64,000 nucleotides of DNA from assembly GCF_040412425.1 (NCBI RefSeq), contig NC_089762.1, positions 21,391,647 through 21,455,646 on the forward strand, read 5' to 3'. The position numbers were made by a program, and so were the translations under genes. Positions 4,748 to 45,659 of this stretch are shown here, one piece after another (the first letter of the stretch is position 1; each line of letters starts with the position of its first letter). This DNA is from Macrobrachium rosenbergii. Lineage: Eukaryota > Arthropoda > Malacostraca > Decapoda > Palaemonidae. The notes beneath the pieces are model-generated. The model had not been told where the DNA came from. It saw nothing but the letters and a program-made list of their open reading frames with translations, and ran no database searches.

Positions 4748-4749
<2 letters not shown>

Positions 4750-4835: not shown

Positions 4836-4837
<2 letters not shown>

Positions 4838-17737: not shown

Positions 17738-17801
17738 ATATGTGTATACATATATATATATATATACATATATATGTATATATATATTATATATATATAA
17801 A

Positions 17802-17880
<79 letters not shown>
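17738..17880. repeat. (TA)n microsatellite with interruptions
   Basis: About 140 bp of TA/TATG-type repeat; the longest pure run is about 17803-17876. Confidence 0.97.
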
Positions 17881-21619: not shown

Positions 21620-21762
<143 letters not shown>

Positions 21763-21922
21763 AGCGGGCATAACCAGTAGTCAAAACTGTGAAATGCACA
21801 GGGAAGTTGCTACCACAGGCAGGAAATCCTTGGAGCACCTTAGTTGAGCCAGAAACCATTGTTAAAAAGGCTAAAACCTAAGACAGGTGCTGGAAGAGTC
21901 CAAAAAGCCATTAGCCAATACT

Positions 21923-21962
21923 ACTGCCAGCTCTTTTTGAAAGTTCAAAAAGAGCTGGCAGT
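21923..21962. repeat. Perfect 19-bp inverted repeat with 2-nt spacer
   Basis: ACTGCCAGCTCTTTTTGAA (21923-21941), then AG, then the exact reverse complement to 21962. It could form a tight hairpin or cruciform. No element end or promoter was recognised around it. Confidence 0.95.
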
Positions 21963-23740: not shown

Positions 23741-24114
23741 TTTGGATGCTTAAAAATTTGTAGAATTTGGAGGGTACTATTCAGAATACTATAAATGGTA
23801 GCAACCCAGAACACTTATAGAGTATCAGTAGTGTATCAGCAGTATGTAGCTCTAGTAACAACATGGTAGATTGGGAGATGAGGAGTTCATCTGCTGACTG
23901 GATGCGCAGCATTCACATGAGAGGATTGTACTATGCATTGCTTGCTTGAGGAATAATCAAAATACAGCTCTATCATATGTGTATTATTGCTGTTGCCATC
24001 ATGTTGGAATACAGGCAGTCCATGGTTATTGGTGGCCTCGGTTATCAGCAATCTGGTAACTAGATGTGATGAATTTCATTCATATATTTATATATATGTA
24101 TATATATTTGTATA

Positions 24115-24420
24115 CAGGCAATCCCCAGTTATCCAGGGGGTTCCGTTCAGAGGGTGTGATGATAACCGAAAATCAGTGATTTTCGGCACTTTTTTGGCAG
24201 TTTTCGGTGGCTTATCTGTGCCGATTTTTAGTGACTGGAACCTCTGTTAGGTATGTATCAGCGCCAACACCCAATTATCAGCACCAGTAAGTAGAAATTG
24301 GTGATTTTCGGTGCCAAAATTGCCGATTTTCGGTGCCAAAAATTGCCGATTTTCGTCGCTAGCAAGCCCCATAAAACCGGATCGCCATTAATCGAGCCTG
24401 CCGTTAACCGTGGACTGCCT
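24115..24420. mobile_element. Short CAGGCARTC-family MITE (~306 bp)
   Basis: TA precedes CAGGCAATCCCCAGTTATCC at 24115. The right end CCGTTAACCGTGGACTGCCT stops at 24420 and is followed by ATATA. The interior repeats GATTTTCGGTGCCAAAATTG-like motifs. A partial sister terminus CAGGCAGTCCATGGTTATTG lies just upstream at about 24014-24060, so two copies abut. Confidence 0.72.
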
Positions 24421-24583
24421 ATATATACATGTGTGTATATTATACATACATACACACATATACAGAATGAAGGAAATCAATGGTAGAATTGAAGTTATGC
24501 TGGTGAGGAATTGTAAAGCTGCTTGCCTAGGGAAACTGCTAGAAATGTCACACTGTATTTCAAGAACATCACAGAAGTGCATA

Positions 24584-24977
24584 GCCAGCCCTCCGTATTC
24601 ATGGGGGATGCATACCAGACTTCCCAAGAATAGTTAAAATCCACGAATAGTTAACAACCCCCTTTTAAAAATGTTTCTAACTGCCTATCTTGAAAGTTAA
24701 AATACCAAATGGATAATTTAAAGTATCATCGTACATCAAATGTACCTTAAATTATTATCCTATTAATGTATTAGTCTTTGAAATTATATTATTAATATAA
24801 TTTCAAAGTCATCTTAAACATTTTACCCTTAAAAATATATATGTATGTACTACTTACCCTTCCAGCCAATAATAGAGAGAGAGAGAGAGAGAGAGTATAT
24901 CTTCTTTCTGTCAGCCACTCTCCCTTTCTATCTGTCTATCTACCTGTCTGTCTATCTCTCCATCCCTCACATTCCTT

Positions 24978-25046
<69 letters not shown>

Positions 25047-25368
25047 TATCCTTCATAAGGTATTTGACCACAAAGTGGCATCATATATTTGACCACTGAG
25101 TGGCAACGTCATCTACCCTTGCAGTCAGTATGTCAAGATATTTGACATATTTGACTGGTTACACCCCCCTTGCTCCAATTCTTTAGGAAAAAGATGAGGG
25201 AAGAATTTATATGGAACTAAAATCGGCTTAATTCACTATGTTTTCTTTATATTAATATTAGTATATTTGAAAATTAGTAATATTAATATCTGAAAATTAG
25301 TAAATCATTTATTTATCATACAAAAATAAACATACATATTACATATGCATAAAAATCTGCTTATCTCA

Positions 25369-25413
<45 letters not shown>

Positions 25414-25672
25414 ATTATTTTTATTAATGTTATTTAATCTTATTAAACTTAATATTTGAAAATTAGTAGTGTAAATCATTATTTTATCATAAAATGTATA
25501 GATATATAGGTACAGTACAGTATTTAGTCATGAAAATACAGAATATTGCTCTACAAAAAAATCTGTGAATGGGTGAGTTTTCCTGCAAATAATTTATAGA
25601 TAGTTTCTACTGAAAACTCTGCGTATCATGAGCCTGCAAATCGTTAGCCTGTGAATTGGGGGTGCCCGACTG
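24584..25672. mobile_element. Inverted-repeat element with internal GA tracts
   Basis: The left end CCAGCCCTCCGTATTCATGG is mirrored by the right end GTGAATTGGGGGTGCCCGAC and TG, followed by TA at 25673. The interior carries three (GA)n tracts (about 24873-24895, 24980-25042, 25373-25410), a perfect 33-bp palindrome and text shared with the MITE at 13568-14988 (TTAATATTTGAAAATTAGTA; TATTTAGTCATGAAAATA). No transposase is visible. Probably a non-autonomous mariner-type element. Confidence 0.55.
24776..24808. repeat. Perfect 15-bp inverted repeat, 3-nt loop
   Basis: CTTTGAAATTATATT, ATT, AATATAATTTCAAAG. It lies within the element at 24584-25672. Confidence 0.93.
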
Positions 25673-27473
25673 TATATTTCAAGAAAATTCACTGAAAAAA
25701 AATCCTTGTCAAAGCACACTGGTCCACCAAGTGCAAACGCAAGCAGACAGTGAGGACATGATCAGCACCACTATCAGCATAACCAGAAGAGCAGGTTGCA
25801 GAAATGAGATGGAGTGAAAGGCAGCACTCCCATGACTCAAAGAAGTTGCATAGTAGAATGTTGAGTACATGAAGTAAATGTGGAGTTAACTGAACATGCA
25901 GAGTGAAACTTTTTGCTTCATGTAGCTGGATCCATCCCATAATGGTAAAGGCTGTTTCATGTTAAATGAGCTTGTCATTTATCAACAATTTGGGTGTCAA
26001 GATAAAGTGGTATCATGCTATCGTACAAAAAAGAAGTTAAGATAAATAGTAGGCAGACAGATGGGGAAAAATAGAGGATTCAAGTCAGCAATTTGTTTTC
26101 AAATATTTTTGTTGATGTAAGTGTGCATTAGTCTTAGGTTGGAATGTAGAAGTATGTTTATACTGTACAGTATTACAAAATTCACAAATGGTCAGCATCA
26201 TAATTAAACTGCTTGGTACCTAACCCAACCTAGCCTAGCCCAAACTAAACCTAGCCTAACCAGACCTAATCTGCACCTCCAAACCTCAGGATCCGAGGAT
26301 AGGTGTTCCATGGTGTTGTTAAGGAATGATACCATGGTAGTTCCTGTCAACAAGAGGGGGAGGGTGGCTAATAACCTTGTTTCAAAGAATTGTTCGATCT
26401 AGGAAGACAGTCGGGTAAGTCCTTCAGTCTCTGCACACCGAAGATGTTACTGTTCGGCTCTGTCTTGATGGACCGTGGTTATAAGAGCCAACAACCATAC
26501 CACATTGAAAACACCGCTTCTCATCCTGTCAGCAAAGTTTAGCAACGATTGGGTCTGGTCAGTAGTTGGGTAGATGATCCTCTGGGAACACCAGATGCTG
26601 TTGATGTCTAGGGGACGTATTTCACATCCATGGTTAGAAACATTGGGGTTAATCAGTACTTGGATGAGTGATCTGTTAGGAACTCTAGATGCTGTTGGTG
26701 TCTAGGAGATGTCTTTTGCATCCTTGATTCGAGTCTTCAGCTTCTGCCTGATTTGTGGGTGATCAACAGTGTATGAGCATTCCGTTTCTAAGGACCCTAA
26801 AGGCTACCAAGTGCCCAAAGGGCTCTTGCATTATCACTTGCTTTTGGTTCCAGCTCTGCCAAGTAGTGTTCAAGAGCTCCATTTCTTTTGACTTTATGTA
26901 TTATCAAATGGACGTACTGCACTCCACAGGCTGACATGGTGGACAACAATACATTTTGGGTGAGATTTCTTAAGGTCAGGGGCATTTGGTCTGCCCCTAA
27001 CATTCACGGAGAACCTGCTGGTCAGGTACTAAGGATGGGAATGCTGTCACAACAGATAATGTTCGCCTCCTTTTTACCTTTGGGACATTGTGTTGTTGAT
27101 GACTGATTATCTTGTCTAAAATTTAGCTCATTTTGGATTAACAGATGCAACTTCTACCCTCTCTAGTAAGGGGAGAGAAGACTGACAATGAACAGACCCT
27201 TTGATTGTCTTCAGCTTTATTGTCCTGGACAGTATGGGTTCATCCAAGCCTATCTTCGAATCAGTGACATTACCTGCCATGTATTCAAAGGCCCAGAAGT
27301 CTGTCAGTTGAACATCACACATGTTCAGCAGATCAGAGGCATGGGTCTCCTTCCTGTGATCATACATGACCAGGAAAGAGGCCCCATGTGAGGCAAATGA
27401 CCAGTCAGTTTAGAGATTTGCTCAGAATCCTCCCACCAAGGAGTAAGTCTCCCCTATGTAAAGACAGAGGAAC

Positions 27474-27775
27474 AAATGACAAATTTTTATAGTACAGTAA
27501 TTTGTATTTTTCCTAACATACAAACCTGAGGTCTTACATAAATGGCCCACCTCTAGCCACCACTCATTCTGCTTCCTGGACCAAAAGGTAAAGTGAATGT
27601 GTACCAATTGAATGGAGGGATTCCTCCCCTTCCATCAGTAGCTAACTACCATTGTCACCTTGTTTTAAATTAAAGAGCCCGCACCAGCTTGCGCTGAAAG
27701 TAAATCCCATATGTAAAGACCTCAGTTTTGTATGTTAGGAAAAATACAAATTACTTTAAAAAAATTTGTCATTTT
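27474..27775. mobile_element. Foldback MITE with ~60-bp terminal inverted repeats
   Basis: The left arm contains AAATGACAAATTTTT, AATTTGTATTTTTCCTAACA and TACAAACCTGAGGTCTT. The right arm contains AAGACCTCAG, TTTGTATGTTAGGAAAAATA and CAAATTA...AATTTGTCATTTT in inverse order. The arms are imperfect over about 60 bp and flank about 170 bp of unique sequence. There is no coding capacity. The superfamily is not clear and the flanking duplication was not resolved. Confidence 0.75.
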
Positions 27776-30408
27776 TCAGAGATAGTTTTAAGGAAGTTTA
27801 AGGTGGTGGTACTCCTTAAAGAAAGATTGTAAGAATTGCTGGTTATCTGTATAACAGTTATTTACAAGTTAAAACTAATGTTTTACCAAGGCTTTTCTTA
27901 GCGATATCTGTCTTGACTGTTAGTGGGAAAGTAAGTTGAAAGTCTGGATAGCCATTCATGATCAGTTGTCTAGATGTTCTTTAGAAACAATCTTCCAAAC
28001 TCATGCCACAGGTTTACACTGGCTGTATCTTGTTGCAGTGATATTGAGCACACCTCTTGAAGTTTGAGTTTGGAACAGCATCCTTGTTAATGATTTTGTA
28101 AGGTCATTCATACTGATAAAAGTCAGTATCTTTAACAGTTGGGACTTGATGAAAATGATAATCTCCATTATTTTCTGTCACATGGGAAACAGTATCCATG
28201 GGAGACCTATCGTGAGTATTTTAATATCAAAGTCTAGTAACGGAAGCATCTTTTTTAGTAGTATTGTGAGCCACTTAACACTGTATGCCAATGGATCGTA
28301 CAGCCTATTCAGCATATCAGTATTGTTATAAACCATAAGTCATCATATTTTGTGTAAGAGGTCTACTGCTTCAACACCAGCCTTCCTTAAAACAACACCC
28401 AATCATTTTCTTATTACTGGCTGAATGAACTTCTAGCACCAAGTAAGATCTTATAATTGTTGAGCTGGATGTTATGGAGTCTCAGATGATAAAGCTGTAG
28501 TTAATTTATGATGGGCAGTTGGACAGTTGTCATTGACAATTCCTTTCTGTCAATGGGAAACTGATATTGCTGTAGAATTAGAAGGTAACTGGATATACCC
28601 ATAAAGAAACAATGCTTTTCAGGCTTTTAACTGCAGATCAATTGTTCTCACTAGTTGTGCTTTTAAATTAATGAAAAAAATTAATTGGCACTTGAGAAGT
28701 ATGATACAAAGTAATAATTTTGTTGTTTTCAATATTTATATATGCAAATATATGAGCATTTGTGATGGTCTGGTGAATGGTACCTCTCAGATTTAGCAGA
28801 GCTTTATCAGACAGTGTCAAATCATTTAGGTTTTCTTTGGTACTGAGAAGAAATATGGCACAATTTGCCATCTTATCATCATTAAGCAACATATGTTGTT
28901 CTCCGATTTGTGTTTTCTGCGATGGTTGGTTTCAGCAGAAAACATTGTGATGCGCTGCCAGAAATATTTAGTCAGTGGCAGCACTAACTCCTGAGTAATT
29001 CAGAGGCATATATTCTTGTGGACTAGTTTGGTATTGATGTCCTGTTTTAAATATTGTTTCCTCTTAACACACATCCTAAATTAACCTATTATGTTTCACA
29101 CTACCCATCTCTTGTGCTATCATTTATTTTCTATGTTGGTGCTGAATTATCTTCTCTTTTCCGGTACCTGGATTTTTTCCCCTAAAAAAAGCAGTACTGT
29201 TAAGATCCTGGCACGTAGTTTTTGTTCATGGAAAGTCATTTATCTCATAACCAATCGAGTGTGGTGAATCCACCTTCCAATTTTTAGGCTTTATATCACT
29301 CTTCATTTTACTTGATAAAACCAGCCCCACTTGTGCAGACTGCCTTCCCAAGCTATTTTCTTTGAAATGCAAGAGTGTTATTATGAAGCAGACAGGATCA
29401 GTAACAGTGAATGAGTAACTGTGAGTGTGGGTTTGTAGTGGTTCAGAAAAATATGGACTAAAGGGAGGGCTGGCTTGATCACTTGTATGTTTTTAGTTCA
29501 CCTCAGTTCCGGACATGGAACAGTAGATAAAGCCCACCAAAAGTATGAAAAGAAATAGTGCTCTTTCTAGACCTTAATTAAGGATGACAGAGCTGTTACA
29601 AGTTGTCATTGGGAGGGAAGTATCTTCTTTGGAGCAACTTCTTTAGGTATTCATATTTGTAGTAAATTAATTCAGAAAGTTCAGTGGAAGAATTCATTAG
29701 CAATTTTTGTCATTATCCCGCAATCATCATCTAATCTTTATCGGAATTCGCAACGTAAGAGCCTCCAGTAAGTGGCATAGAGACTTCCATATTTTTTTAG
29801 GTAAATCACTTAAGTAGCATTGAAGGGTCCTTCTAGATTACATGATTTATTGCAAAATAAGGTATGGGAATGTATATTATATAGATTATACTTTTATTGA
29901 TTTTATTTTGCTTTTCCCTGTATGAATTCTGTACTCAAGCTGGTTTAATTGCAGGAATAAAATCTGAGGAAACTTCTAATGTCAGATTGTCAGGTGTCTT
30001 TTTCTTTGTATGTTGCATGTTAGACTTTCTGAAAGTTCGTGAAGTTCTTGCACATATTATGTAGGTACCTACTGCAATTGACCATATAAGAATATTGTAA
30101 TGCTAAAAGAGAAATGAAAATTTTTCATTTAAGTGTTAGTAAATGAACCAGTTTTAACATGCTATTTCATTTTGTAAAAATGTTAAAGAAAGATTTAAAG
30201 ATACATGAAAATATGGATTTGTTAAATTAATTATTATTGTGGATGGTCATCTCAGTATTATTGGGAATTATATAGTCTTAGTTTTTTTAATAGCATTGTA
30301 CTGTAAAATGATAATTTTTTTAAATTTGATTTGTACTCTTTAATGTCAGTAAGCCACAGCTGCTAGAATTATGTGTGATAGTAAAATCCTGTGTTTTGTT
30401 GAATGAAA

Positions 30409-30491
30409 CTGACTAAACATGTAGACTACAGTGTAATCTGCATTGAAAATTGTGCAGTTTCCATGATTGTCTGGATGTTAAGACTTGTCAG
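30409..30491 (+). ncRNA. Candidate microRNA-like hairpin, copy 1
   Basis: An 83-nt foldback. The outer stems are CTGAC/GTCAG, AACAT/ATGTT and AGAC/GTCT. A less paired middle follows, then the terminal stem CTGCA/TGCAG around loop TTGAAAATTG. The core matches the three hairpins at 36-40 kb; this copy is the most divergent (TACAGTGTAATCTGCA at the 5' arm). The outer stem sequence is unrelated to the other copies but still pairs. The strand is inferred from the surrounding host gene; either strand would fold. I do not recognise a known microRNA. Size (77-89 nt) and clustering fit pre-miRNAs; the strongly conserved loop and mismatched middle are unusual for one. Confidence 0.55.
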
Positions 30492-33307
30492 CCAGACTTT
30501 TCTCAAGGAAATTGTTCAGTTGATATTGTTATCTGCATCATCCCAGTACAATATATTTCAAGGGGGTGTTACCAGTGTGAAAGTTGTTGGCTGCAAATTA
30601 TATTGGGTTATAATGGTTATATGGTTGTCTTGGTAACATTAGGAAAAGTATGTTACTCAAATTTTGGAAAATTGAAACATCCTCAGGGTCAGAATGCTTT
30701 TTCCCTTCTCCTTAAATATAAAAGGGAACTTTAAATTAAAAATGCTTTCGAGAGTATTATCTTGGAAATTAAGAAGTTTACAGATGAAATTTGAACAAGT
30801 ATAATTCAAAATGATAATGTCCATTGTGAAGAGGCTGACCTGCATACAGTATCTGAAAAAACTATGTAATCTTCATTGGAATGAAGCACTTTAACAATGT
30901 GAGATATTTGGAAGATTTACATAAACATTGCCCATAGTGCTGTTCAGATGATATATTTGTTCATACAATATAAAACCTTCTAATTTTACTGACACCTTAG
31001 TACCAAGTAAATGTAGTTAATACAGAGCTACTTGTGCTCTTAAAAGTAGTGAAATGGTGATTAATGCTGAGTGAAACCTCCTGCACTAAGGAAGTACTGT
31101 TGTGTCACACCAAAATGATTTACACTCTCATGTCAGAGTTGGGCACAGAATGTTTTTGCACCTGTATATTTAGGTTATGTTTTATAACGTAAAACTGTTG
31201 TTTTTTTTTTTTTATTTACACGCGACATTTGAATAATATGTTCCAGTTTGGACTGTTATGAATATCTTCTTGTCAGTATGAGGTAGCACAATACTTTTTG
31301 TACATTTGCAATACTGTAATTTGACTTGTTCAGTTTGCTGTTTAATTGAAGTTTCAGTAAAATTAATCCTATCCACAAGAGTTGATCTGTTTCATAGCCA
31401 CATAATTCTTCCTTTAGTGGGCTCTGCATAAATTTTATGCTATTGGCAGCTGGCTTATGTAAACATTGGATTCGCTGTCCATCATTACCCTCAAATAACT
31501 GAACCTTGTAACTGTAATTTACATATACTACTGTATTGTCAAGAGTTTGTGGAGTTCCATGCACTGCAACTTTATCCTTTAAAGTGACAAAAGAAATGGA
31601 ACACATGAGCTGCTGAAAATTGCAATAACTAGAGGTACAAGCAAGTACAACTGGTTAAATAAGCACCTACTTTTGTCATAGTATTATGTAAAGATATTTT
31701 TACTCAATTCCTAGGTAGTTATCAGAAGCTTGCGTTGATTTTCACAATTCTCTTTTAATTGTTGGCCTGATGGTTTTGTTTCATCATAACCAATTGAAAA
31801 TTAAAATATTATGTAGCAAACTGGATTTTTTATGTTGAAAAACTAGGTTTCATCCCAGGTGATCATAACTGTCACTCCAAGTTATATCAGTGATTATGTG
31901 ACCTAACAAATACAATTGAATACTTTCTGTTTTACATAGAATTCCTGATAGTAAACCTGCAAGAAAAAATTTAGGCATACTATAAAAATAGATAAAAAAT
32001 ATTTAGTACACACCATAATTTGTGTTTAGTCCAAGAGTTGTCAACAGTTCTCCAATCTCCCTCCTGTTAGAAGATGATATGGTAAAGAGTGACCAAGTGC
32101 TGACAGCTCATGACTAAGAGGGAGGGAGGTGTCAGTAAGCACAGTATATGAGGAATTGAACAAAAAGTGTGCCAAGTATTGGTACTTGTGAAACATAATG
32201 AAATTTTTATCATGCCCCCCACACAGTGGTAGATTCCACCATCCCCACTCACGATGGTAGATCTGCACTAATGTTAAGCATAGTAGGCCTGCTGTTTAAG
32301 GGGCAAAGACAAGACAGTGCCTTTCATAAAGTTGATGGCAGCTTCAGATAGTGTAAGAAAGGCCTAAAGACACTTGATGTTTAACTTCTTAGAAACTTCT
32401 GGTACGTCTTCCTTGGAGAGCTCAAGTCTGGTGAGTGCGTTTGCTTGGTAATCATAAATGTTGTGACTCACACTGCTCAGCAACATTCTCATCCACCCAA
32501 CAACCTCAAGACATCTTTATGTTCTCAAGAGAAGTAACGCCAATGAAGTTGTGGAGGCATTCAGGCCATATCTTCCTCCTGATGTCATTCAGCACAGAGG
32601 GCTAGACTTGTCAGGGCTAGCATCAACAGATTGACTAGGACCTCACTGCTAATGCAGATTAATTCCTTTAACCTAACAATGTTCCTGTTTAATTAACAAA
32701 ATTGTGAGCAAGAAGGTTAACAGTTAGCTTCATTAGAAATATCCCGCCACAGAAAATTGTAATTTTCAATGACTCAAATGTTATAGAAGCCCTGTTCAAA
32801 ACTATTATTAGAGCAAGTTAAGTTGCAGTTCCACAAATTGTATGAAGGGTTTTGAATTGCTTGCACTCAAGTGATCTGTATGAAGGGAATACAAGTCAAT
32901 ACTTATGATTAAATATGAAGGTTAAAACATAAGGAGATATATTAAACTTTGAAAGACTGCTATTTATCAGATGAATTTTGTTATTAACAATAAACACCTT
33001 GGGTCACACCTACCACGATCAAGAATTTAACTCTGCTCTTGTAAAACTACTGATAATAATGGTATTGATTGGATGAGAAGTGGTACGGCTATTGTCAGGC
33101 ACTGTACAGAAATCATGATGCATCATTTATCTGTGATGGGATGCTGTAATTTAGCAACAATCCTTCCACAGATTCACTTACAGGGCCTGAGGTCTCACAG
33201 AAAGTTGACCATCAAATTCAGGTCAGAGGGAATAATTGAAGGGAGTTATTAGCTATACTGTGCAACAAAATAACCCCTATTAGGCTGAAGGGCAAGGTAC
33301 ATAAAAT

Positions 33308-33722
33308 GGTGATAAAACCTGCTGTGTTGCAGTATATAGGCTAGAAACAGCACCGCTGAAGAAAATAGAACAAAATAAATTTACTTTGGCAGAATTGTGG
33401 ATGCTGAGATGGATAAGAGGAGTGATGAAAAGAAAAAGATGAAAAATGATTAAACTGGGAGGTCAGTATACGCCACTGATGTGTCAGAGAAGGCCCAAGT
33501 CAAGATTGAGATGGTTTCAGCAGTTTGTGGAGGAGAGATCATAGAACAGGAAGTGCTAAGGATACAAAGGAGAGGAAGGCCTAAATGAAGATGGAGAGAT
33601 TGCATCAGGAATATATGAGAGAGATAGGATTAGATGAAGGAAGGATGCAGGGTAGAAAGATCTGGAAATGGCTCATTTAAAACAGTGATCCCAATTATTA
33701 ATTAAACTGAGAAGAAGAAAAA
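33308..33722 (+). pseudogene. RTE-type LINE 3' end, degenerate
   Basis: The + strand translation carries the hallmark end of a non-LTR retrotransposon reverse transcriptase: KPAVLQYI at about 33318, MLRWIRGVMKRKRM near 33401-33442, then RRGRPK-stop-RWRDCI at 33568-33606 and NSDP near 33688. This order (LRW..GV, RRGRPxxRWxDC, final NxDP followed by a simple A-rich tail) is the familiar C-terminus of RTE-like endonuclease/reverse transcriptases. The stop inside RRGRPKxRW is TGA where an Arg codon is usual, consistent with CGA-to-TGA decay. Only about the last 130 residues survive, typical of 5'-truncated LINE insertions. Family memory only; no search was run. Confidence 0.72.
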
Positions 33723-33953
33723 GTAATGGTAATGATAGTAGGCCTTGAAAGGTGAGATGAGTGTTTACCCGTACTCTATTGGGTGGATTAAAGAAGTAGT
33801 CTTTGGAGGCAAAAACAACAACTTGTTACTAAGATAGTTATCCTTGGCACTCTGGAATGACTTGCAACATCATCTGAATGGCGGAGTAACCTGTTTGGAA
33901 TACTATTTTCTGGCTTACTGCATAAGGGCTGAGAAACATGGCTAACCTTTATC

Positions 33954-33975
33954 CAACCTAACCTAACCTAACCTA
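33954..33975. repeat. Short (AACCT)n run, telomere-type
   Basis: About four consecutive AACCT units. The complement TTAGG...GTT phase matches the pentamer telomere repeat of many arthropods. It is too short to be a real interstitial telomere block; a looser AACCT/AGCCT-like run also occurs at 26217-26275. Confidence 0.6.
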
Positions 33976-36309
33976 TTGAACTGGATTTTTTTTAGATTGT
34001 GCAAAGCTGCTCCTTGGTAAATCTCTTCAGTTTCATTTGATTCTTTACGTTAGAAATAGGAAAGGCTAACATTATCAAATCACTGTCAGTGCTGGAAAAG
34101 AACACCTTGGACATATGGTCCTTTGCAGCTTCAAACCCAAGTGGTCTTCTTTTGAATGATAAGTCTTGGTAGACATACTCTTTCAGGAAAGGCCCATCTC
34201 AGCTTTGTTCTAGACTTACCTGGCAGTGTAACCACTATCATGACTTTGTTGCTTCTGCCCTCACAACATCTGAAGTCAGTGTAAAATTAACTGAACTCAG
34301 TTTTGAAAGTCCCCGTATGAGCCACAAATTGCAGGCAATATCTCCTTGTAATTAAGGCTTCCTATTTAATTCTTGGAATTAGCTTACAGTGATATGGCCT
34401 TCATTTTCACTGGTTAGGTGGATATATTGGCCTGCCTCCCATTCATATCCAGGATACAGATGAATAGGGGCCTCTCCATCCTTATGATTGGGTCACACAT
34501 CTTGGCAGTCCCTGTAACAGTAAGAAGAGATGTTCTGATCTACCACAAAAACAGCATCGATCTGTTTAAGGACAGTAGGTAATGTTGATTGGCCAAAACC
34601 AAGTACTCACTGATATGTTCAACACTTTGTACTTTGCTGTTGCACTGCCTAATGTCCAGCATCACTTAATAATAACCCTTTTGGCACCCTCAAGGTTGGA
34701 AGCTTTACCATACACTTACACAGTACTTGAGAGATGTTTAAAGATTTTCAGTTCATCAGATCAGCAAAAGTTGCTCGTACATATCTCAACATATTGTAAA
34801 AATGGCAGAATAAGATTTCAGAGTATGGCAGAGTTCATATTCTCTTTATGATTGCTTGATGTCAGCTGACGCTCTACTGGATAACACACAAGTTATGCTT
34901 GCACACAGGTTCTGTAACCAGTATTATCCACAAGATTAGTGCCTATAGCATCAGCTAAACGCAGCCGCCTCTGACACTTCTTGAGCAGTTGTTTATCAAA
35001 AGTGCTATCATCAGAAATTGTTGTATATTTCTGATAATATCTGTCTATTAACCTTGTGGAGTGAATATTGTATATTCAGAAAAACTCTATGCTGAACAAT
35101 CACATAGAGAGTCAGAGAGAGCATTTGTGGTATGTTCTAAAATTCAAGAGTGTATCCCTAGTGATGGCAAGCCTCCTGTAAGTGTCTTTTCATGAAGACT
35201 GCGGCCCAGATGATATTGCTCATTACATGAAACAGGAGAGGAAACTTAGTTTTTGGCTGAAGTTACTTTTGTGAATGTTGTATTATCTTGGATTGCAGTG
35301 TGATGGAAACCAAATAATTTTTGAGTTGGAATGGCATATTGTCATTCTAGCTTTTAACTGGACTTTGTAAGAGAGGATAGAGGGTGGTGAGAATATTCTT
35401 AGTGTGTCTGAGAGGAAAAAAGAGAGAGAGAGAGAGATACAATCATCCACTTGCCAGTTGTGTTGTAGTTCATATTTTTGTATCATTATATGGTGGTGTT
35501 GGTTATGAATTTCCAAAGAATAATGTAGCTTTCATGGTTTCATGGAGATACATAAATACTGTGTAGTTAGGAGTAATGTAACTTTATGGAGATACATTAC
35601 AAATATATTATGTAGCTATGGCTGTTCATTTCTAGTTTTATGAATATGCCAACTAATAAGATATTAATTGTTTCCACTCTATATTAGAGATTGACTGAAG
35701 AGCTTTGTGTGTTGTACAGGTAGACAATTACCTTCATAAATTCCAAGGAGTCACTCCTAACGTCTCTGATTATGTAATTCCTTTATTACATATGGGTGGA
35801 TTTAAATTGGTAGGTTATTGAAGGAAGGTTCCACCAGCATTAATCTTGGCTCTGTTTGTTTTAAGTGTAATAAGTACCACGCTAACCACTTTAACTAGTG
35901 TTAAGGCAGGAGTAAAATGAGAGGTTTGGCTGTGTTAATATAAAGATTAGTGAAAATTGTGTTTTTGCAGACTGTAAATACACCTCCATGTTGTAAGGTG
36001 GATTCTGTATTTAGCAGCGAGTATTAAAAAAACTTTTTTTACCCATTGTAAAAGAATAAATAAGATTTTCTTTTAGAAACTAAGCTGGAATGTTACTGAA
36101 CTTCATTTGCCAGCTTTGGAATGCACTGTACCTGGATATTTTATTTAGAGTTGCTTTCAGCTTAACATAATGTTCAGCAATTGTTTTACATATAGTTTAG
36201 TGAAAGCTTTAGCTATGGTTAACTTTTTGCTTCAAATGTTCAGTGAGCCATTGATGCAAGGAAGTATTGCCAAATTATAAATTATAATTCCAGTGTTCTT
36301 AAAGGATTT

Positions 36310-36398
36310 AAGTTGACCCTACATCTAGACAATAGTGTAACCTGCATTGAAAATCGTGCAGTTTCCATGATTGACAAGATGTCTTGGGTGGTCAACTT
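36310..36398 (+). ncRNA. Candidate microRNA-like hairpin, copy 2 (best paired)
   Basis: An 89-nt foldback and the best paired of the four. The outer stem AAGTTGACC (36310-36318) pairs perfectly with GGTCAACTT (36390-36398). The next stem ACATCT pairs with AGATGT, then a 1x1 A/A mismatch, GACAAT with ATTGAC, a mismatched middle (AGTGTAAC opposite TTTCCATG, about five pairs), and CTGCA with TGCAG closing loop TTGAAAATCG. A mature-size 3' arm would lie near 36354-36375. The core is almost identical to copies at 38313 and 40105; the lower stems differ but keep pairing. Confidence 0.6.
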
Positions 36399-38312
36399 TC
36401 AAATTATCTAGTAAAATCATGGTAGGCAATCTCTTGCTATATTAAAATGTAACCCCTAACCAGAGAACAGCATATGAGCAGATCTTTATTAGCCAAATAT
36501 GTGGTTACTGCTCCCTGCTCTGGAATATTTATCAGCAAATACCAACCAAATACTTCAAGTATATTATGCACTAAGTGCTGTATCTCAGTCTATGACAGCT
36601 CATTACTTTCAGTTTGTAGCCATTTTTTTTATTTATTCCTGCATTGGATTATAACCAAATCATGTTATATCAGGAGACTTGGGTTCATGTATCTGAACAT
36701 CATAAAACATTCTCTGCAGTTTCAACTTTTGGCAAGATATCAGTTTGTGGAAGTTTGCCCTTAAAGATATGACATGCTTTGTACAAGATGCTGAGGTAGC
36801 TTGTGAATCAGAGTATCATAACCATATTGAAATTGGTGTGGTTTTCAATAGAATGTCAGAGCTCAGTCATTGGTGATTGCGCAGGTATGTTGTCCTTGAT
36901 TTGAATCAATTTATAGGTAATACCTGTATTGTTAAAATAATTTTATTTTTATTAAAGCAAAGTAAGTGTGATTTAAGATTGTGCACATTTTGGTTAAAAT
37001 GAGCTTGTTCACACCAGACTTCAGATAATCATTTTAGCATATTAATTTGAAATTTATTTTGCCTTTAGAAACGTTGGCCGTATTCAAAAGTATAACCCAG
37101 AGACCAGCTATACTTGATGCTGCTCGCAGAAAAACTACTAGAATAAAAAGGAGTTGCTGAAAAGGGAGTAACAGGGTTCTGGGGTAGATATCCATTGTAG
37201 TACCATCTCTATTTCAGTTGTTTTGTGAATTCAGTTACATATGCCCTAAATTAGGATGGAATTAGTTTTGGTTTGTAATCACCCATTCATATTTTAGGCC
37301 AGATATTGTGGTATGGAGTTTATGGTCTGAGAGCTATCCACAGACATAACAAATGTGAGCAGATAGCTGCAACACAGCAAAAACAATATTGCAACGGGAG
37401 ATAGTATACTCACTGAATTATGAGTTTGAAGAGTGTAAGAGGCCTTCCTGGCTGACCTATTCTGATTGTTAATTTGTTTATAAAATGAAAAATTCCAGCA
37501 CCATCACATTATAATAACATATATTGTTATATAATGCTTAGTTGCTGTACTAACTGGAAAAATGTTTAGGATACACTAGGGATTATTTTTGTCCTTGCTT
37601 AAGTCAAGTCTTGAAATATCGGATTTGATAAAAAAAGTAGAACTTCTGGGAACTGTAAGTATATATGGAGAAGTCAGTGATGTCTGTTACAAAAGCATTA
37701 AAAATATTATGATGGTCTTAACTCCCCTGACTCCCCACTTAAAAAGAAGTAAGAATGAAGTGCTCTATAAATTATTAATGGCAGAAAGCCTTAAAGTCAT
37801 AGTGCATACATTCTTTTATATAAAGAATGGTATAGTGGAATGCTAAAGAACCATGTTTGCCATTTTACTTCTGAATCTTCTTAAACAATAAATGGCAGGT
37901 AGTACATTTTAAGTATTGGATGCTATCATGAATTCAGGTCTTTGTTTCCAACCTCATTTTTACTTTTTATGAGAATACGAATGAGAAGTAACTTGCTGCT
38001 AATTGGCTGTTGTTTCACATAGAGCATTGCTTCTAAACTTATGCAGGTAGCTGTACAGCCAAGGGAGATTAAAATTGATATTTTAGGTAAGGTAAATAAA
38101 CTGATCAAAACTTCCTTAAAGTCTGGTTTGCCTTACTTAATAAAATACATATTTATTACTTGGTGGCAGCTGGTGGGCAATATTTTTGATTGCATAATAA
38201 TTACTTGTAAAGAAGCAGCAGCTTCTGTCTTCCAGCGTGATTGCTGGCATGTGAACTGCAGTGTTAAGAAGTGTTTCATGCATTGTGAATTTCCATACTC
38301 AGATTTCAAGTA

Positions 38313-38389
38313 GACCAAACTTCTGGACAATAGTGTAACCTGCATTGAAATTCGTGCAGCTTCCATGATTGACAGAATGTTAAGTGGTC
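38313..38389 (+). ncRNA. Candidate microRNA-like hairpin, copy 3
   Basis: A 77-nt foldback. GACCA pairs with TGGTC at the base, AAC with GTT, TTCT with AGAA, GACAAT with ATTGAC, and CTGCA with TGCAG around loop TTGAAATTCG. It differs from copies 2 and 4 at two core positions (loop A to T; first base after TGCAG is C, not T), neither of which breaks the terminal stem. Confidence 0.58.
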
Positions 38390-40104
38390 GTATCAGGAAT
38401 AGTATGTCCTTTAAAAGTGTTATTGGAATGACTCCTAGGTTTGATTGTAGAGAAAAGAAAACACTTCATGCTACATTTGTGGCTTTGAGCCTTTCAAGGA
38501 TGGGGACATGTTAAGCATATCAGTTGCTCAAGCGTTTAATATTGTGTCTTGATTTACTTTGATATGTCATGAAAGTACTTCCTTTCTAAAGAGCAGTGCA
38601 TTTCAGCTCTCAATGAATGTGGGGAGCTGTAAGAAAAAGTAGGTACAGTAGTTTCGTTTCACCACAATCAGTAAATGAGATTTACACGTCCCTTTGTGTC
38701 ATCTATTAGGCTATCATTTGAGAAGCAATTTTACAAAGCCATTACATAAGATTTCATGAAAATTGATATTCAGGATTTAATGTTAATTGTAAGTGTGGTA
38801 CTGCCCAGAAGGACGAACGTAAAGTGCATATCTTCATGTGGCCTGCAGTGACACACTTCTACAATCAAGAATTGATGATAATTGCCTTTGAATTCTCCAG
38901 AATTATTGTGCATGCAGTAGTCTGTTAGTGTGTTTAAATTTTACTCCAGAGTCCTCAGGAAAATTTTACTTATTTACATTATCCTGTTATAGAAGATGGT
39001 TTTGAATTTTTGTGATAATCATAGCACTAGTTATAGAAAAATCCAGAAAAGTTCAGTTTCAGGTTTAAAATTGTGTACCACACGCACTTTGTAAATAGCA
39101 AGGATTTTTTAAAGAGAGGAAACATCTTTATATAATTTGTAAAGTTACAGTGGCAGATTATTTGCCTTCATTTTCTACTGAGTGATAGAAAGGACATAAC
39201 TCAAAACTTCACATCTGTTTTTACATGCATGCCTGATGGACTACCATACATTTAAAAAATTAGAATATTGGAAATTTGAAATTTATATACTTTAATGATC
39301 GCCTACGAAAAATTGGCTTTACTTTTGCTGCTGATTTTGATGAATCCCATTAAGTCATACCCCAAATAATGACGTCAAAAATGGAATACTTTTTGAAGAA
39401 TACCATAGTGATGATATTTTTCTGAGAATACCACGGTGAGGAGTTTTTTCTGAAAAACAGTTTGTAACTGGGTAAAATTGTTTAAATATTAGATTATATT
39501 TTTCTTTGATATGTAAGGAGAGAAACACCATGATCAACCTTTAGACAAATTATATTTTTATTATGATAAAAATAACTAAAATTCTAGAAGTTTTTTGATG
39601 ACTTACTTGTGGTATTTGTTGCTGTTCTCTGGAATATATTATTGATCCTAGATGAAAAGATTTAGATGATAGAAAAACTACGTTTTGAATAATTGGTATA
39701 GTGGAAGTAGCATATTATCAAATTTTGAAAAATAAGTAGTTTAGTTTTATCCAAAAATATTGAGAAAATGCCTCACTCAACAAGATTGATATTGAAACTT
39801 GTTTTTAGACAAAGTTATGAAGAACATTTACATGTATATTTTGAACCCATTAGTGATACATGGTTGCCACTGCATTTAAGGAAGCCAGCTAGTTTCCAGT
39901 TGGAGGAAGGAAATACAACTGCAGGATAGTACTTAAAACCAGTGCATTTCACCAAGGTACTCAAAGTGATTGAAATAGTATTTCATTAGTATTACAAACC
40001 AATCTTTTACCTCATTTGTTGTCAGCACTTATGGTTTTTATTGGCAAATGAGCAGAACTTTGAGAGATTAGCCCTGCACTTGTTCTACTGTATGTATCAA
40101 TTTT

Positions 40105-40181
40105 GACCATTCTTCTGGACAATAGTGTAACCTGCATTGAAAATCGTGCAGTTTCCATGATTGACAGAAAGTGTAATGGTC
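40105..40181 (+). ncRNA. Candidate microRNA-like hairpin, copy 4
   Basis: A 77-nt foldback. GACCATT (40105-40111) pairs with AATGGTC (40175-40181), TTCT with AGAA, GACAAT with ATTGAC, and CTGCA with TGCAG closing loop TTGAAAATCG. The core is identical to copy 2 over about 50 nt. It lies 1.7 kb downstream of copy 3 in the same orientation. Confidence 0.6.
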
Positions 40182-41387
40182 TTGTGAAAAAATAATGGTG
40201 TATATACAGTATATATCTGAACCACCACTCTTACTGTAATTATATCAATGATCTTGGAAGGCTGCTTTTCAGTTGTACATTGAAATACTGAAGGTGGGGG
40301 ATAAGTAATCCTCAAAAAGTCCTAATGTGCGATCATACTATAGAATTCAACTGAAAGCCTAGAAAAATTTTGGCAACTCTATGAAGAGGGCCTTTGTTGG
40401 AAATTCAGTCTGGTTGAAGTTTTAAGTTGCTCTGTTTTTTTAGTTTCAAGGAATGTGATGTGAAATTTGGTAGTTTACCTATGCATTTTAAGTACTTACC
40501 CAGAAAGATTATGGAGATACCACATTTTTTAGAGTGAATCAGTAATTTTTTTAACTAGTGCTGTTGTACTTTATTTTCAATGTAATTGGCACTTTCATTG
40601 AGACTGAAAAATCTTAGAAGTCTATAATGTCCAAGGCCATTCCAAGATAAGTACAGTATACAGTAACATTACATACTGTATATGCTCAACTACCTCAGCA
40701 GTGCTATAATGATTCTTTTTTGAAAATGCATGTTTTAGATATTTTCCTTTATATAAATAAAGTCTTTGAACAAAACATGTTCATAAACATGAAAACTCAT
40801 TTCTTTAGCCTATATCAGAATTAGGTAAGTGCATAAGGTACAGTTTATTTGTATTTAGTAGAGGTTACATAAGGCTATGAGTATTGGAATACAGACCATT
40901 GTACAGTACTTAAGATGATGTCTTTTAATGTGGGGTTGTAATATCACTTTAGGACTTGTGTAGATTGAAGCATTAAAGCTTAATGAACAAATAATGTGTC
41001 ATGTGGCACTTGTTAAAGATTATTGTGCAGTAGTGTGCTTTTAATGAAAAAATGTTATATAAAACCAAATGCTTCCCATATATTATCAAGTTCATAATAT
41101 AAAAATTTTAGTCATACAGTTGCATTTTAACTTACTGTGTATATCAGTATTAAGACAGATGTATCTATTACTGTAATCTGTGCCTACACAAGTCACAGCA
41201 GCCACTGTAGTTACTTGTAAAAACAGCTGTAAGTACAGAATGTTGGAACTCGCATGTATGTTATTGTTCTAAAAAATAAGCTCAAAGTAGAGAAAAGAAT
41301 CTCACAAGCCACACAAATGGAAGATGATATTTTATGTTCTCTTTTTTTTTTATTTTGATGTGAGGAACTCCTTTTTATTTTAGGATA

Positions 41388-41639
41388 CAGGCAGTCCCTG
41401 ATTATCTGCGATCCGGCTTTACGGCACTTGTCTAGCGACGAGAATTGCTGATGTGCGCCGATTTCCACTTACTGGCACCAGTAATCGGGTATTGGCGCTG
41501 ATACATAACTAATAGGGGCACTGATCTCTGGTTATCAGTGCCGATAAGCTCCAAAAATCAGTGATTTTCTGTTATCGGCAATTTTTGCTTATCGTCATGC
41601 CGTCGGAACAGAACCCCACCGGTAACCAGGGACTGTCTG
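41388..41639. mobile_element. Short CAGGCAGTC-family MITE (~252 bp)
   Basis: TA then CAGGCAGTCCCTGATTATCT at the left. The right end is CGGTAACCAGGGACTGTCTG at 41639. GC-richer than its surroundings, with short internal inverted motifs (CGGTTATC/GATAAGC-like). Same family as 13568-14988 and 24115-24420. Confidence 0.75.
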
Positions 41640-44069
41640 TTTATATTATTTATATCCATATATAACAAGATCTCGCAGTATGAGTGTTGGGTATGTTTTA
41701 AATTTTTGATGAAGCATTTTCATTGCTGCTGGCAACATTATCAACTAATGTAATACATTTTACACTGGATGGCTAGAAAAAGTCGAAGAGCTCACATAAT
41801 AATAGTTTTTCACATCCTCAATTAGAGCATATTTGCTGCTTATTAAATGGCACTTAGTCATGGGGACATGGCAGTGCTCTCCAATGCATAGTGTGGTGGG
41901 TCCAGCTGTCCAAGAATGAAGGTGGAATACTTGCCCCAATTACAGTGAACAGGGTACATTGCTTTAAAAAAAGTAAGATTTTAAGTTTTATTGTTATTAT
42001 ATATTATGTAATTTAACTAGGCCTCTGTCGTAAAAACTTGACTCTCAAAAGGACTAGTTAATAGCTCTTGCAACAATACAGTTTTAAGGCAGACAAATTT
42101 ATTAAATAAAAATTTTTTTTGTCAGTAAATGGTGATTTGCAGCAGTGTAATGGTTGTCTTTAGTCTTTAGGTTTAGATTGATTATAGAAGTTGAATTAAT
42201 TCTTTTGACTTTGTACAGTGAGGTTTGGATCTTAAAATAATTGCCCTCAGGTAGTAAGAAAGGCAGGTACATATGGCATTTGCTAAATTTCTTTGTATTG
42301 TCCAGTCCTAGTGTCCCTTAGATAATTAGGTGGTGTGATTAATGCCTTATATTCAGAGTACTTATCTTGTAACAGTGAAACCCTGAGAAAAGGAGATGAA
42401 ACTACATTGAGCAGAGATCAAAACTGATGTTGACAAAGGAGATTGAATTTAAGTATAAGGAAAAGTTGAATGCAGAGAGAGAAAGAAGAGACAGACTCAA
42501 ATCTAAAGGTTTGGACAGGGTAGTTTTAATAAACCAGAGAAATTGGAAAATCTCTTTTCCAAAATTTCCAAATTTTAAACCTTTTGATCATAAAAGCATT
42601 ACCAAGGAACTATTCAGGCACTTAATGTTTGACACACTACGTGTGTTAGCACCCTGGGTGAAAAGTGAAATATATAGTGGATAGAGATTATTGTACTGAT
42701 AAATGAAATAGCAGTAAGAAATACGAGTACAGTTTCTTAATAGGATTTGAGTGACGGGTTTACAGATATTTGTGTATCTTCCCCATGATTCCAGGCAGAA
42801 TTTTTTTAACATGATTTGGTTCTCACAAAGTTTCTTCTTCAAAAGTCATGGGGAGTAGTCATTTACTCTGCAAGTTAATTGAGACTGTTTTAAGGGTAAC
42901 TGTCCATAGGAGCCAGTATAATTCTTTTAGCATTCAGTACTTTGTCCAGCCAAGGCTGTAAGTTGTGTTTAATGGCAGGTTTGCTATTGGACAACATGCT
43001 AATTTCAGTACACTGGAGGAATTTCTTTGGAAATTTAAGTAGGGAACAAAGCATATACAGTGTCATTAAGTTGTAATTCCTCAAAACCAGTTTGGCTGTA
43101 TCATCTACATGAGGAAAATTATGTAAAGTTTATTAGAGAAACTCCCAATTCATTAAAATACATCATAAGAGAAGGTGGGGGCAACTTTTGCACAGCACAA
43201 CCTGCCTAGAGGTTTGAATTACCGTGGACTCTGGGATGCAAGACATAGGTGGATTTAAGGATTTGAGAATATATTCATGCATATCAGCAGTATGGATCTA
43301 AAAGTTAACAAATCTTTGCTGCACCAAATTTTTTCTGTACATGTTCATTCCTTATGTGGTTGGGGAAGAGCTGTAAAGAATGTAATGGATATTGTGGTAT
43401 CTTTCATGAACTAAAAGGGCTATTGGATCTTAAGGCTAAGTCTTGACTTGTGGCTATAGAAGTAGCATGCTGAAATTTCTGGTAACAATTGGCTTTAGAT
43501 GAATTCTTGAATGTTAGTAGCACTGTATTGCACTCTGCTTCCCTGAGTTCAGCCCTATGAGAACTTAAGATTTTTAGCTCAGTGGTTTTGCTAAACTGTT
43601 TTCTTAACTGACTCTGGCAATTATTAGGGAGATGAGACCTAATAATTACAATGGCATAATTAACACTTGTGGACTGGATACTCCTAGCCATTTTACTTGC
43701 GGGTGTTTGTGCATCTGTCCTCAAGAATTGTTGGAATTCATGTAGGGATGGTTAAGGAACAATGAGGTCATTTGGTTTTGGAGATGAATCCAGTCAAAGA
43801 TCAAAGATTATAATATTTTTAACTTGGTAGGTCAGTTTTTCAAATGTTATTTTCTCTTTTTAACAAAACTGTTGCCTAATCTTGATAGGAAAGTTCAGGC
43901 ATTGTTTTTTAATGAAAATATTTAAGTCTACGAGGCTTCACGGAGATGAGCCATTATTAAATTTGTTGTTTTGCACCATCTGAGTGCTTTCTAGTGGAGG
44001 TCCTTTTTTCTTTATTGTTCCAGACTTTTGATTTGGAAAAGCATTTTTTTAAAGCACTAAAGAGAATAG

Positions 44070-44073
<4 letters not shown>

Positions 44074-44106
<33 letters not shown>
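44074..44106. repeat. Poly(T) tract, 33 nt
   Basis: A homopolymer run in the intron; it could be the tail of an antisense retro-insertion, but no element body was recognised beside it. Confidence 0.9.
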
Positions 44107-44107
<1 letters not shown>

Positions 44108-45104
44108 GGAGCTCTTTTAGGGCTTTTCTTATTTCATGGTCACACAATTTCTTTTGACTGATTTGAGATTCAGATTAATTTAAATTTTTTTCCTTGTTAT
44201 TTTCTTAATATTTTGAGTGGCAAGTGCACATTTTCATATGCATTTGAATTATATTTTACCCTTGAAATATTTGTATGGAAGAAAATTTTTATCTTTTTAA
44301 AGTTAATGTGAAATACAGTACATATGTTTCAGATATTTGTTAAGACACCAGGTTTATAAATAAAATTTGTTAAGCAATCAGACAACTTTTTGAAAATTGG
44401 CACATCAGGCCACCGTTGGCTGTGGACATGGATAAGAACAGGTTTGCTGTAGTGTAAGGAAGATTATGACTTAAAGACAACAACCAAACTTTCCTTTGGT
44501 GATCATAATTCATGCAAACTCTTAAACTGCTTTTGTTTTCTGTGGGCCTGAGTCATATTTTCAGTCTTCCTGGGGTCATTGAGCTTTGTAGAAGTATAAT
44601 ATTTTGGTGTATTGTGATGGCCATCCATAATGTAAAATATTTTTCACATATAAGTGTATGTTATCATTGAAGTCAGACTTGAGGTGGAAACTAGTTCAGA
44701 GATATCATTAGCTATGGATAGTGGAATATCTGCTGTGCTGAGATGATCAACAAACAGAGAGGGATGATGATTATACAAAATTTATTTTGAAAAAGTGTTG
44801 CTGTTTTGAACTTTGTTGAAGGAGGTTCATTATTATTTTGTAACACAAAGGTCAAACTGTTTTCTCTGAATGGATGTCCATCTTCCTGTATAACCATAAG
44901 AAACTTTGGTTGCAGAAATATTTTTATATATTTCTGTAACCCAAATTCATACAGATGATCTGGATGATATGAGATGGCTATGACACTGAAAGAATGTGAT
45001 CTTGTAGTATGTGGAAAGTGGTGTTTGTATTGTGGCAGGGCAAAAATGTTTATAAGAAATAGGAGGAACTGTTGTTTGTTTTGATGCCAAATGAAGGTCC
45101 TACT

Positions 45105-45132
45105 ACAAAATAATCAATATTGATTATTTTGT
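45105..45132. repeat. Perfect 28-bp palindrome
   Basis: ACAAAATAATCAAT joined with no spacer to its exact reverse complement. It lies about 350 bp before the exon at 45483. ATCAAT/ATTGAT are common homeodomain/CUT-type cores, but no regulatory role is shown. Confidence 0.93.
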
Positions 45133-45482
45133 GTAAGTATACACTATATGTAGAAGCAGTGTGTGTGTGTGGGTGAATCAACTGTTAATGATTGTTGTTG
45201 CACACTTCCATTCCATTTTGTTGATTCTTGAAAAGTCTTTGGGTGTAAAATATGTATTCTCTTGTCACTAAAGTCTTTGGACTAATAGACATTCATATTT
45301 TTTAATGCAAACTTGTCAATTTAGTCATCTCTGTGTAAGAAACCCAGCAAGATATTTACACATGATGTAGCCATAAGGTGAATCAGCCTAAGATGTTTAC
45401 TGTATACTGTAGACATAAGGAAGTAGGTTTTTATCACATTTATGCAGTTTGTTTGGATTGTTTTTAAATACGTGTACTACAG

Positions 45483-45659
45483 AATTTAGAAAACGTCGCC
45501 GTGATGACTACGATGATGAGGATGATGAGGATGATGGTCGAGACAGAAGGTGGAGAGAGAGAGATAGTAACAAGCAAGGAGTTAAAGAGAAGAAAGAAAA
45601 AGAACCATTTGATCCAAAGAAAGGAGCAGAAATGGTGAAAAGCGAAACCGAGAGGTTAG
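45483..45659 (+). CDS. Internal host exon (177 nt), acidic then basic low-complexity
   Basis: The exon is bounded by acceptor CGTGTACTACAG and donor GTAAGT, is 177 nt long, phase 1 at both ends. With the leading G of the previous exon it reads EFRKRRRDDYDDEDDEDDGR, then a basic stretch around RRWRERDSNKQGVKEKKEKE, then PFDPKKGAEMVKSETERLG. It is Arg/Asp/Glu/Lys-rich and hydrophilic, has no membrane or signal segment and contains a basic cluster (RKRRR) that could act as a nuclear localisation signal. Codons are mixed and intact, unlike the decayed elements around it. Together with the YG/RG-rich exon at 2409 this suggests a nuclear RNA-binding or RNA-processing protein, but I cannot name the family. 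Reading on past the donor gives only intronic microsatellite-encoded residues. Confidence 0.82.

What the first reader, a model, noticed from the sequence alone, without database searches (positions are those of the whole stretch)
30409..40181. Four paralogous ~77-89 nt hairpins with a conserved core and co-varying outer stems in one intron
At 30409, 36310, 38313 and 40105 a ~50-nt core recurs (AATAGTGTAACCTGCATTGA followed by AAATCGTGCAGTTTCCATGA), all in the same orientation and inside about 10 kb. Copies 2-4 are almost identical in the core; copy 1 is more divergent. Directly outside the core the sequences differ, yet each copy's left and right flanks remain complementary: CTGAC/GTCAG with AACAT/ATGTT; AAGTTGACC/GGTCAACTT with ACATCT/AGATGT; GACCA/TGGTC; GACCATT/AATGGTC. 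Divergence with retained pairing is the signature of selection on RNA structure. Length, clustering and intronic position fit a polycistronic microRNA cluster. The conserved loop and the mismatched middle are not typical of a microRNA, so another structured RNA or a small foldback transposon family is possible.
Basis: partly seen in the sequence, partly recalled or inferred. Interest (0 to 1): 0.88.

Follow-up and report, generated by a model that had tools for sequence, protein, structure and literature searches.

The report
Four-copy intronic microRNA-like hairpin cluster
A freshwater prawn carries four related RNA hairpins inside one very long intron, and a search of its 3.2-billion-base genome found no others; they look most like a young microRNA gene cluster, which small-RNA sequencing still has to confirm.

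Summary
Four same-strand hairpins (30409-30491, 36310-36398, 38313-38389, 40105-40181) share a ~46-nt core. All lie sense in one 43-kb intron (2460-45482) of a gene whose two flanking exons match a Macrobrachium rosenbergii protein at 100%. A search of the 3.18-Gb assembly with copy 4 finds exactly these four, so the high-copy MITE/SINE reading is rejected. Conservation steps down at the predicted Drosha sites: arms and loop 88-92% identical across the four copies, lower stems 61-69%, flanks unrelated. Geometry fits a Microprocessor substrate: 13-18 nt below and 20 nt above the predicted cut, 8-nt loop, predicted 50-nt pre-miRNA. No Rfam family matches, and the core was not found in relevant main texts of the held papers. 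Against: covariation is thin, folding energy is ordinary for this window and weaker than this genome's mir-2 cluster, the minus strand folds nearly as well, copy 1 loses its hairpin in longer context, and no small-RNA or orthologue evidence was available. Best reading: a new microRNA family, one cluster of four, lineage restriction and function unproven.

The parts
2411..2459 (+). host-gene exon upstream of the intron (residues 915-930 of P0018)
   Evidence: tblastn 100% over 16 aa; AG/GTAAGC boundaries
2460..45482 (+). 43,023-nt intron that holds all four hairpins
   Evidence: between the two exon matches; GTAAGC donor and ACAG acceptor
30409..30491 (+). hairpin copy 1; predicted 5p 30424-30445, 3p 30452-30473; most diverged
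   Evidence: not the favoured fold in contexts of 160 nt or more
36310..36398 (+). hairpin copy 2; predicted 5p 36328-36349, 3p 36356-36377
38313..38389 (+). hairpin copy 3; predicted 5p 38326-38347, 3p 38354-38375
40105..40181 (+). hairpin copy 4; predicted 5p 40118-40139, 3p 40146-40167
45483..45658 (+). host-gene exon downstream of the intron (residues 931-989 of P0018)
   Evidence: tblastn 100% over 59 aa (its match begins one base inside the intron because the junction splits a codon)

Best explanation
A microRNA family new to the libraries searched: four paralogous pri-miRNA hairpins in one 43-kb intron. The host pre-mRNA is transcribed through them (inferred). Microprocessor cuts each hairpin before GACAAU (GACUAC in copy 1), 13-18 nt above the stem base and 20 nt below the loop (inferred from geometry). 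Dicer then releases two arms of about 22 nt (in copy 4 GACAAUAGUGUAACCUGCAUUG and GUGCAGUUUCCAUGAUUGACAG), one or both of which load into Argonaute (inferred). Local duplication made the copies, and selection keeps the ~50-nt pre-miRNA nearly fixed while the lower stems drift. Shown: the copies, their confinement to this intron, strand relative to the host gene, fold and conservation step. Not shown: transcription, processing, target repression.
For: Exactly four matches to copy 4 in the 3.18-Gb assembly at E up to 10, agreeing with the exact 20-mer (3) and 18-mer (4). All sense in one intron. Among copies 2-4, 2 of 46 core columns vary against 19 of 39 arm columns, gaps counted as differences in a hand alignment (Fisher 1.9e-6). 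The step falls at the predicted cut: identity 0.92 / 0.88 / 0.91 in 5p / loop / 3p against 0.69 / 0.61 in the lower stems, all four copies. All 4 variable positions inside core 6-41 are unpaired (P 0.017, post hoc). Geometry: 13-18 nt below and 20 nt above the cut, 8-nt loop, 4-6 unpaired nt per arm, against 13 nt, ~22 nt, ~35 bp and CNNC at 16-18 in PMC7174388 (passages); at most 7 mismatches and a hairpin of at least 50 nt in PMC12594335 (passages). UG at -14/-13 in c1, c2, c4 and CNNC in c1, c2 at the same cut. The known mir-2 cluster of this genome has kilobase spacing on one strand too.
Against: No small-RNA reads and no orthologue could be examined. Energies (-24.4 to -30.9) are weaker than the genome's mir-2 hairpins (-38.1 to -48.4 in 125-nt pieces) and ordinary for this window. 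The - strand z-scores of copies 2-4 are as good as the + strand ones. Both arms and loop are conserved, unlike the mir-2 paralogues, which keep only 3p. Copy 1 loses its hairpin in longer context (P 0.01-0.05) and copy 4 drops to 0.15-0.47 in some. Copy 3 lacks UG; copies 3 and 4 lack CNNC; 15 of 213 window hairpins have both at one cut, and the copies are not independent. No Rfam match. Covariation thin. A predicted 50-nt pre-miRNA is at the short end (recalled).
Confidence: 0.6

Rival explanations
1. Another structured intronic RNA: a hairpin bound by an RNA-binding protein or editing enzyme, or an element that acts on splicing or stability of the giant intron, with the whole ~46-nt core as the binding site and no Dicer products.
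For: Both arms and the loop are conserved together; internal mismatches stay mismatched when bases change (C-U to U-U in copy 1, C-C in copy 3); the stem is weak for a microRNA of this genome; four sites in one 43-kb intron.
Against: The step in conservation falls where Drosha would cut and the outer stems still pair; no known structured RNA family matches.
Confidence: 0.2
2. No function: a few small local duplications of a palindromic stretch, with the core kept alike by recency or local gene conversion.
For: Hairpins of this quality are common in the window (203 clusters); all copies sit within 10 kb; covariation is thin.
Against: Neutral copies should diverge evenly, yet core and arms differ sharply (2 of 46 against 19 of 39 variable columns), and 4 of 4 inner-core changes spare paired positions (P 0.017).
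Confidence: 0.13
3. A mobile element (MITE, foldback or SINE).
For: Palindromic, 77-89 nt, no co-linear homology in the flanks.
Against: Four matches in 3.18 Gb; best flanking direct repeat 5 nt in c1 and c4 and none of 5 or more in c2 and c3, no more than random loci give; the ends are the least conserved part; no tRNA-like gene found in the window. Limit: the genome tool skips very common words and scores only the best candidates.
Confidence: 0.04
4. A small duplicated coding exon.
For: One + frame of the core is open in 4 of 4 copies (LDNSVTCIENRAVSMID), and one - frame too.
Against: In the + frame every core difference between copies changes the amino acid, and P0018 has nothing between residues 930 and 931. 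The - frame was not tested formally.
Confidence: 0.03

Closest known systems
mir-2 cluster (Rfam RF00047) in the same genome, G000 contig C48:70241356-70244757
   Same: Several paralogous hairpins on one strand, 0.4-2.0 kb apart.
   Different: mir-2 paralogues keep only the 3p arm (0.88; other parts 0.48-0.58 by fixed slices) and fold more strongly; here both arms and the loop are kept (0.88-0.92). No sequence relation: Rfam finds no mir-2 match at the hairpins.
Intronic (host-gene) microRNA clusters in general (recalled class)
   Same: Sense hairpins inside a protein-coding intron, with pri-miRNA-like stem length and loop.
   Different: No expression evidence; weak stems; not matched to any Rfam microRNA family.
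mir-9436 (Rfam RF03362)
   Same: Best Rfam hit of copy 1, full model over 30409-30485.
   Different: 15 bits against a gathering score of 80, E 2: chance level; copy 2 has no hit at E up to 10.
MITEs / foldback elements
   Same: Short palindromes.
   Different: Four copies in the whole assembly, no excess of target-site duplications, conserved centre instead of conserved ends.

Membership tests
microRNA | Imperfect stem-loop with a possible 20-26-nt duplex, 2-nt overhang, at most 7 mismatches and no asymmetric bulge over 3 nt (criteria seen in PMC12594335) | tested here: met
   Isolated folds of 4 of 4 copies: 22-nt arms placed with a 2-nt overhang, 4-6 unpaired nt per arm, 50-nt pre-miRNA. 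Placement is my own; copy 1 does not keep this fold in longer context.
microRNA | Reads from both arms with precise 5' ends | not testable with these tools
   No small-RNA data; supplements could not be opened.
microRNA | Microprocessor stem geometry (13 nt from basal junction, ~22 nt from apical, ~35 bp; PMC7174388 passages) | tested here: met
   13, 13, 15 and 18 nt below the cut, 20 nt above it. 89 of 213 window hairpins have an arm of 33-38 nt, so this is weak evidence.
microRNA | Optional enhancer motifs UG (-14/-13) and CNNC (+16 to +18) | tested here: inconclusive
   UG in 3 of 4, CNNC in 2 of 4, both in 2 of 4; both in 15 of 213 window hairpins.
microRNA | Conservation of precursor and mature arm in related species | not testable with these tools
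   No related eukaryote genome is held; scans of viral contigs and genome contigs gave 0, as expected for animal DNA.
known Rfam microRNA or other RNA family | Match at or above the gathering score | tested here: not met
   Whole window at gathering: only a 5S rRNA; 28000-44000 at E up to 5: 4 hits, none on a hairpin; around copies 2 and 1 alone: none, and five sub-threshold hits.
MITE / foldback element / SINE | Many dispersed copies, target-site duplications, conserved ends | tested here: not met
   Four copies in 3.18 Gb; no excess of flanking repeats; ends are the variable part.
protein-coding exon | Open frame with mainly synonymous differences between copies | tested here: not met
   Open + frame, but all core differences in it are non-synonymous.

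The most novel reading that the evidence does not exclude
A clustered intronic hairpin RNA family that is not a microRNA: the whole ~46-nt core (both arms plus loop) is the selected unit, a binding site repeated four times in one giant prawn intron for a protein that acts on that intron or its host gene.
Probability: 0.13. Interest if true: 0.6.

Novelty: new member of a known kind. Interest (0 to 1): 0.42.

Why it matters
If it is a microRNA family, it is a young four-copy cluster in a farmed prawn whose paralogues still show which parts of a precursor selection holds (pre-miRNA) and which it lets drift (lower stem). The whole-genome count makes the usual transposon-origin objection answerable for this family. 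Existing prawn small-RNA libraries could settle it quickly.

Tried and rejected
Transposon family: rejected by whole-genome counts and the flank test. The five one-mismatch 18-mer hits elsewhere (reversed-pattern control 2) show no matching second arm, read by eye from 50-nt flanks; one of them (L010) lies in what looks like a tandem repeat with similar words, not followed. Coding exon: rejected for the + frame. Pol III small RNA: no tRNA gene, little shared sequence in the 50 nt upstream. SECIS, Y RNA, hammerhead and similar elements were considered from memory only; no landmarks seen, no test run. Rfam: nothing at the hairpins. Pfam scan of 28001-47802 and PDB scan of 31001-45999, + strand, three frames: nothing; host proteins P0018 and P0020 have no Pfam match at E up to 0.1. 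A first homologue search with the downstream exon found nothing; the second, with a longer frame around the same exon, found the host gene. DNA scans of viral contigs and genome contigs: 0. Paper text searches for core 13-15-mers in RNA and DNA letters: two papers and two, unrelated by title, seen as listings; supplements not searched. Other paper searches were seen as listings; passages were read of PMC9459145, PMC12594335 and PMC7174388. Not answered: the whole-genome query with copy 1, a loop-flexible pattern (79, 86, 92, 96, 101, 105, 107, 110, 113) and a 39-mer with mismatches (68).
Full report
What is there. Four related hairpins lie on the + strand at 30409-30491, 36310-36398, 38313-38389 and 40105-40181 (ends from the folds). 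Copies 2-4 vary at 2 of 46 core positions; copy 1 differs from copy 4 at 5. No other copy exists in the window with up to 18 substitutions in 51 nt on either strand. A sequence profile of the four returns 12 matches at E up to 10: the four, three reverse-strand matches to the hairpins themselves (E 1.2e-6 to 5.9e-4) and five others at E 0.44 or above. Each folds well by itself (-24.4 to -30.9 kcal/mol, z -3.09 to -3.62). The reverse strand has higher energy in 4 of 4, but z-scores as good for copies 2-4, so the fold alone does not fix the strand. Hairpins of this kind are common here: 203 clusters over both strands. The finding rests on paralogy and the conservation pattern, not on stability.

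Where it is. A homologue search with the exon at 45.5 kb found three proteins at E up to 1, the best a 1484-aa M. rosenbergii protein (P0018) at 100% identity, the others from M. nipponense and Palaemon carinicauda. P0018 residues 915-930 match at 2411-2458 and 931-989 at 45482-45658, both 100%, and its other matches in the window have E 1.3 or worse. Splice sites are GTAAGC at 2460 and ACAG ending at 45482. All four hairpins are sense in this one 43,023-nt intron, 5.3 to 15.0 kb before its 3' end. A reverse transcriptase frame at 61608-62537 (-) has 17 relatives at E up to 1e-20; of the 8 that carry a name, 6 are Palaemon or Macrobrachium and 2 are bacterial MAG records.

How many copies. The assembly (3,176,501,063 bases, 78 contigs) was searched. 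The exact 20-mer of the 5' arm occurs 3 times, all in copies 2-4, with 0 control hits. The 18-mer of the 3' arm occurs 4 times without mismatch, in the four copies, and 5 times with one mismatch elsewhere (control 2); the flanks of those five, read by eye, show no matching second arm. The copy-4 hairpin gives exactly 4 matches at E up to 10 (1.3e-41, 1.5e-20, 5.9e-19, 3.6e-9). The tool warns that it skips very common words and scores only the best candidates, and the queries with copy 1 and with flexible loops did not complete, so more distant relatives are not excluded. Flanking direct repeats are no better than at random loci. A high-copy MITE or SINE is rejected.

What selection acts on. 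In a hand alignment with gaps counted as differences, 2 of 46 core columns vary among c2-c4 against 19 of 39 arm columns (Fisher 1.9e-6); for all four copies 7 of 46 against 24 of 39 (1.3e-5). Mean identity over all four is 0.92 in the 5p arm, 0.88 in the loop and 0.91 in the 3p arm, then 0.69 and 0.61 in the 13-nt lower stems. Beyond, there is no co-linear homology; the best flank matches are one 27-nt AT-rich stretch at E 7e-4 and shorter ones at E 0.009 or worse, out of register. Inside core positions 6-41 all 4 variable positions are unpaired (P 0.017; whole core 5 of 7, P 0.04; both post hoc). One internal mismatch, C-U, becomes U-U in copy 1 and C-C in copy 3 and stays a mismatch. Covariation proper is thin: 2 of 21 consensus pairs, one sequence each, plus one hand-read pair of the outer stem (C-G in copy 1, U-A in copy 2). 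Own-arm pairing is best of 24 permutations by a small margin.

Fit to a microRNA precursor. The shared predicted cut, before GAC, lies 15, 18, 13 and 13 nt above the stem base and 20 nt below an 8-nt loop, giving two 22-nt arms, a 50-nt pre-miRNA and 4-6 unpaired nt per arm. PMC7174388 (passages) gives 13 nt, about 22 nt, about 35 bp, UG at -14/-13, CNNC at 16-18 and an enriched mismatch or wobble at 10-12. A mismatch at duplex position 11 is present in all four copies (read from the folds). UG is present in c1, c2 and c4, CNNC in c1 and c2, at that same cut; 15 of 213 window hairpins have both at one cut, and the copies are not independent.

Yardstick. The mir-2 family gave 7 matches in this genome, 6 over the cut-off, with 60 of 569,280 first-look candidates scored; three lie on C48 within 3.4 kb on one strand, and a seed scan shows a fourth hairpin 376 nt after the first. 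These four keep only the 3p arm (0.88; other parts 0.48-0.58, by fixed slices) and fold at -38.1 to -48.4 kcal/mol in 125-nt pieces. So clustering at this spacing is normal for a microRNA cluster of this genome. The conservation of both arms and loop, and the weaker stem, are not like mir-2; a younger duplication would explain this, and so would another kind of structured RNA.

Results against. Copy 1 keeps its hairpin in a 120-nt context (P 0.81) but not in 160 nt or more (0.01-0.05). Copy 4 falls to 0.15-0.31 in a 300-nt context and 0.47 in one 600-nt setting. Copy 3 lacks UG, and copies 3 and 4 lack CNNC. No Rfam family matches. No reads and no orthologues were available. Core 13-15-mers were found in four papers, all unrelated by title. 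A M. rosenbergii small-RNA study reports 223 novel miRNAs, and no sequences appeared in the passages seen (PMC9459145), so these hairpins may already be among them.

Verdict. Observation confirmed; the microRNA-cluster reading is the best supported (0.6); the transposon reading is rejected. It would be a new family of a known kind. That it is lineage-restricted is an inference from the lack of an Rfam match, not a comparison of species.

Noticed in passing
window 26487-26732: A 5S rRNA match (61.1 bits) followed by a second, diverged copy of its 3' part (74% identical, 94 nt apart).
   Followed up: no
window 60713-63858 (-) and 856-2157 (+): Retroelement frames on both ends of the window; the one at 61608-62537 has reverse-transcriptase relatives in Palaemon and Macrobrachium. 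DIRS-like by recall only.
   Followed up: partly
window 47204-48686 and 49356-50112: Tandem arrays of about 383 bp (3.9 copies) and 358 bp (2.1 copies) just after the host exon.
   Followed up: no
window 14375-14849: A 163-nt tandem repeat (2.9 copies) with a short chance-level likeness to the hairpin core, E 0.44 to 4.
   Followed up: no
window 32001-52000: GC skew rises steadily from 0.11 to 0.22 and falls to -0.16 by 56-60 kb.
   Followed up: no
window 24210-24301 and 41458-41549: Inverted pair of 92 nt, 72% complementary, both inside the intron; perhaps an interspersed repeat.
   Followed up: no
G000 contig C67:733930-874854 (L019-L022): Four mir-2 matches of equal score (51.6 bits) over 140 kb on both strands: a possible recent expansion of mir-2-like hairpins or an assembly duplication.
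   Followed up: no
host gene, proteins P0018 to P0020: An uncharacterised decapod protein of 1484-1853 aa; P0018 and P0020 have no Pfam match.
   Followed up: partly
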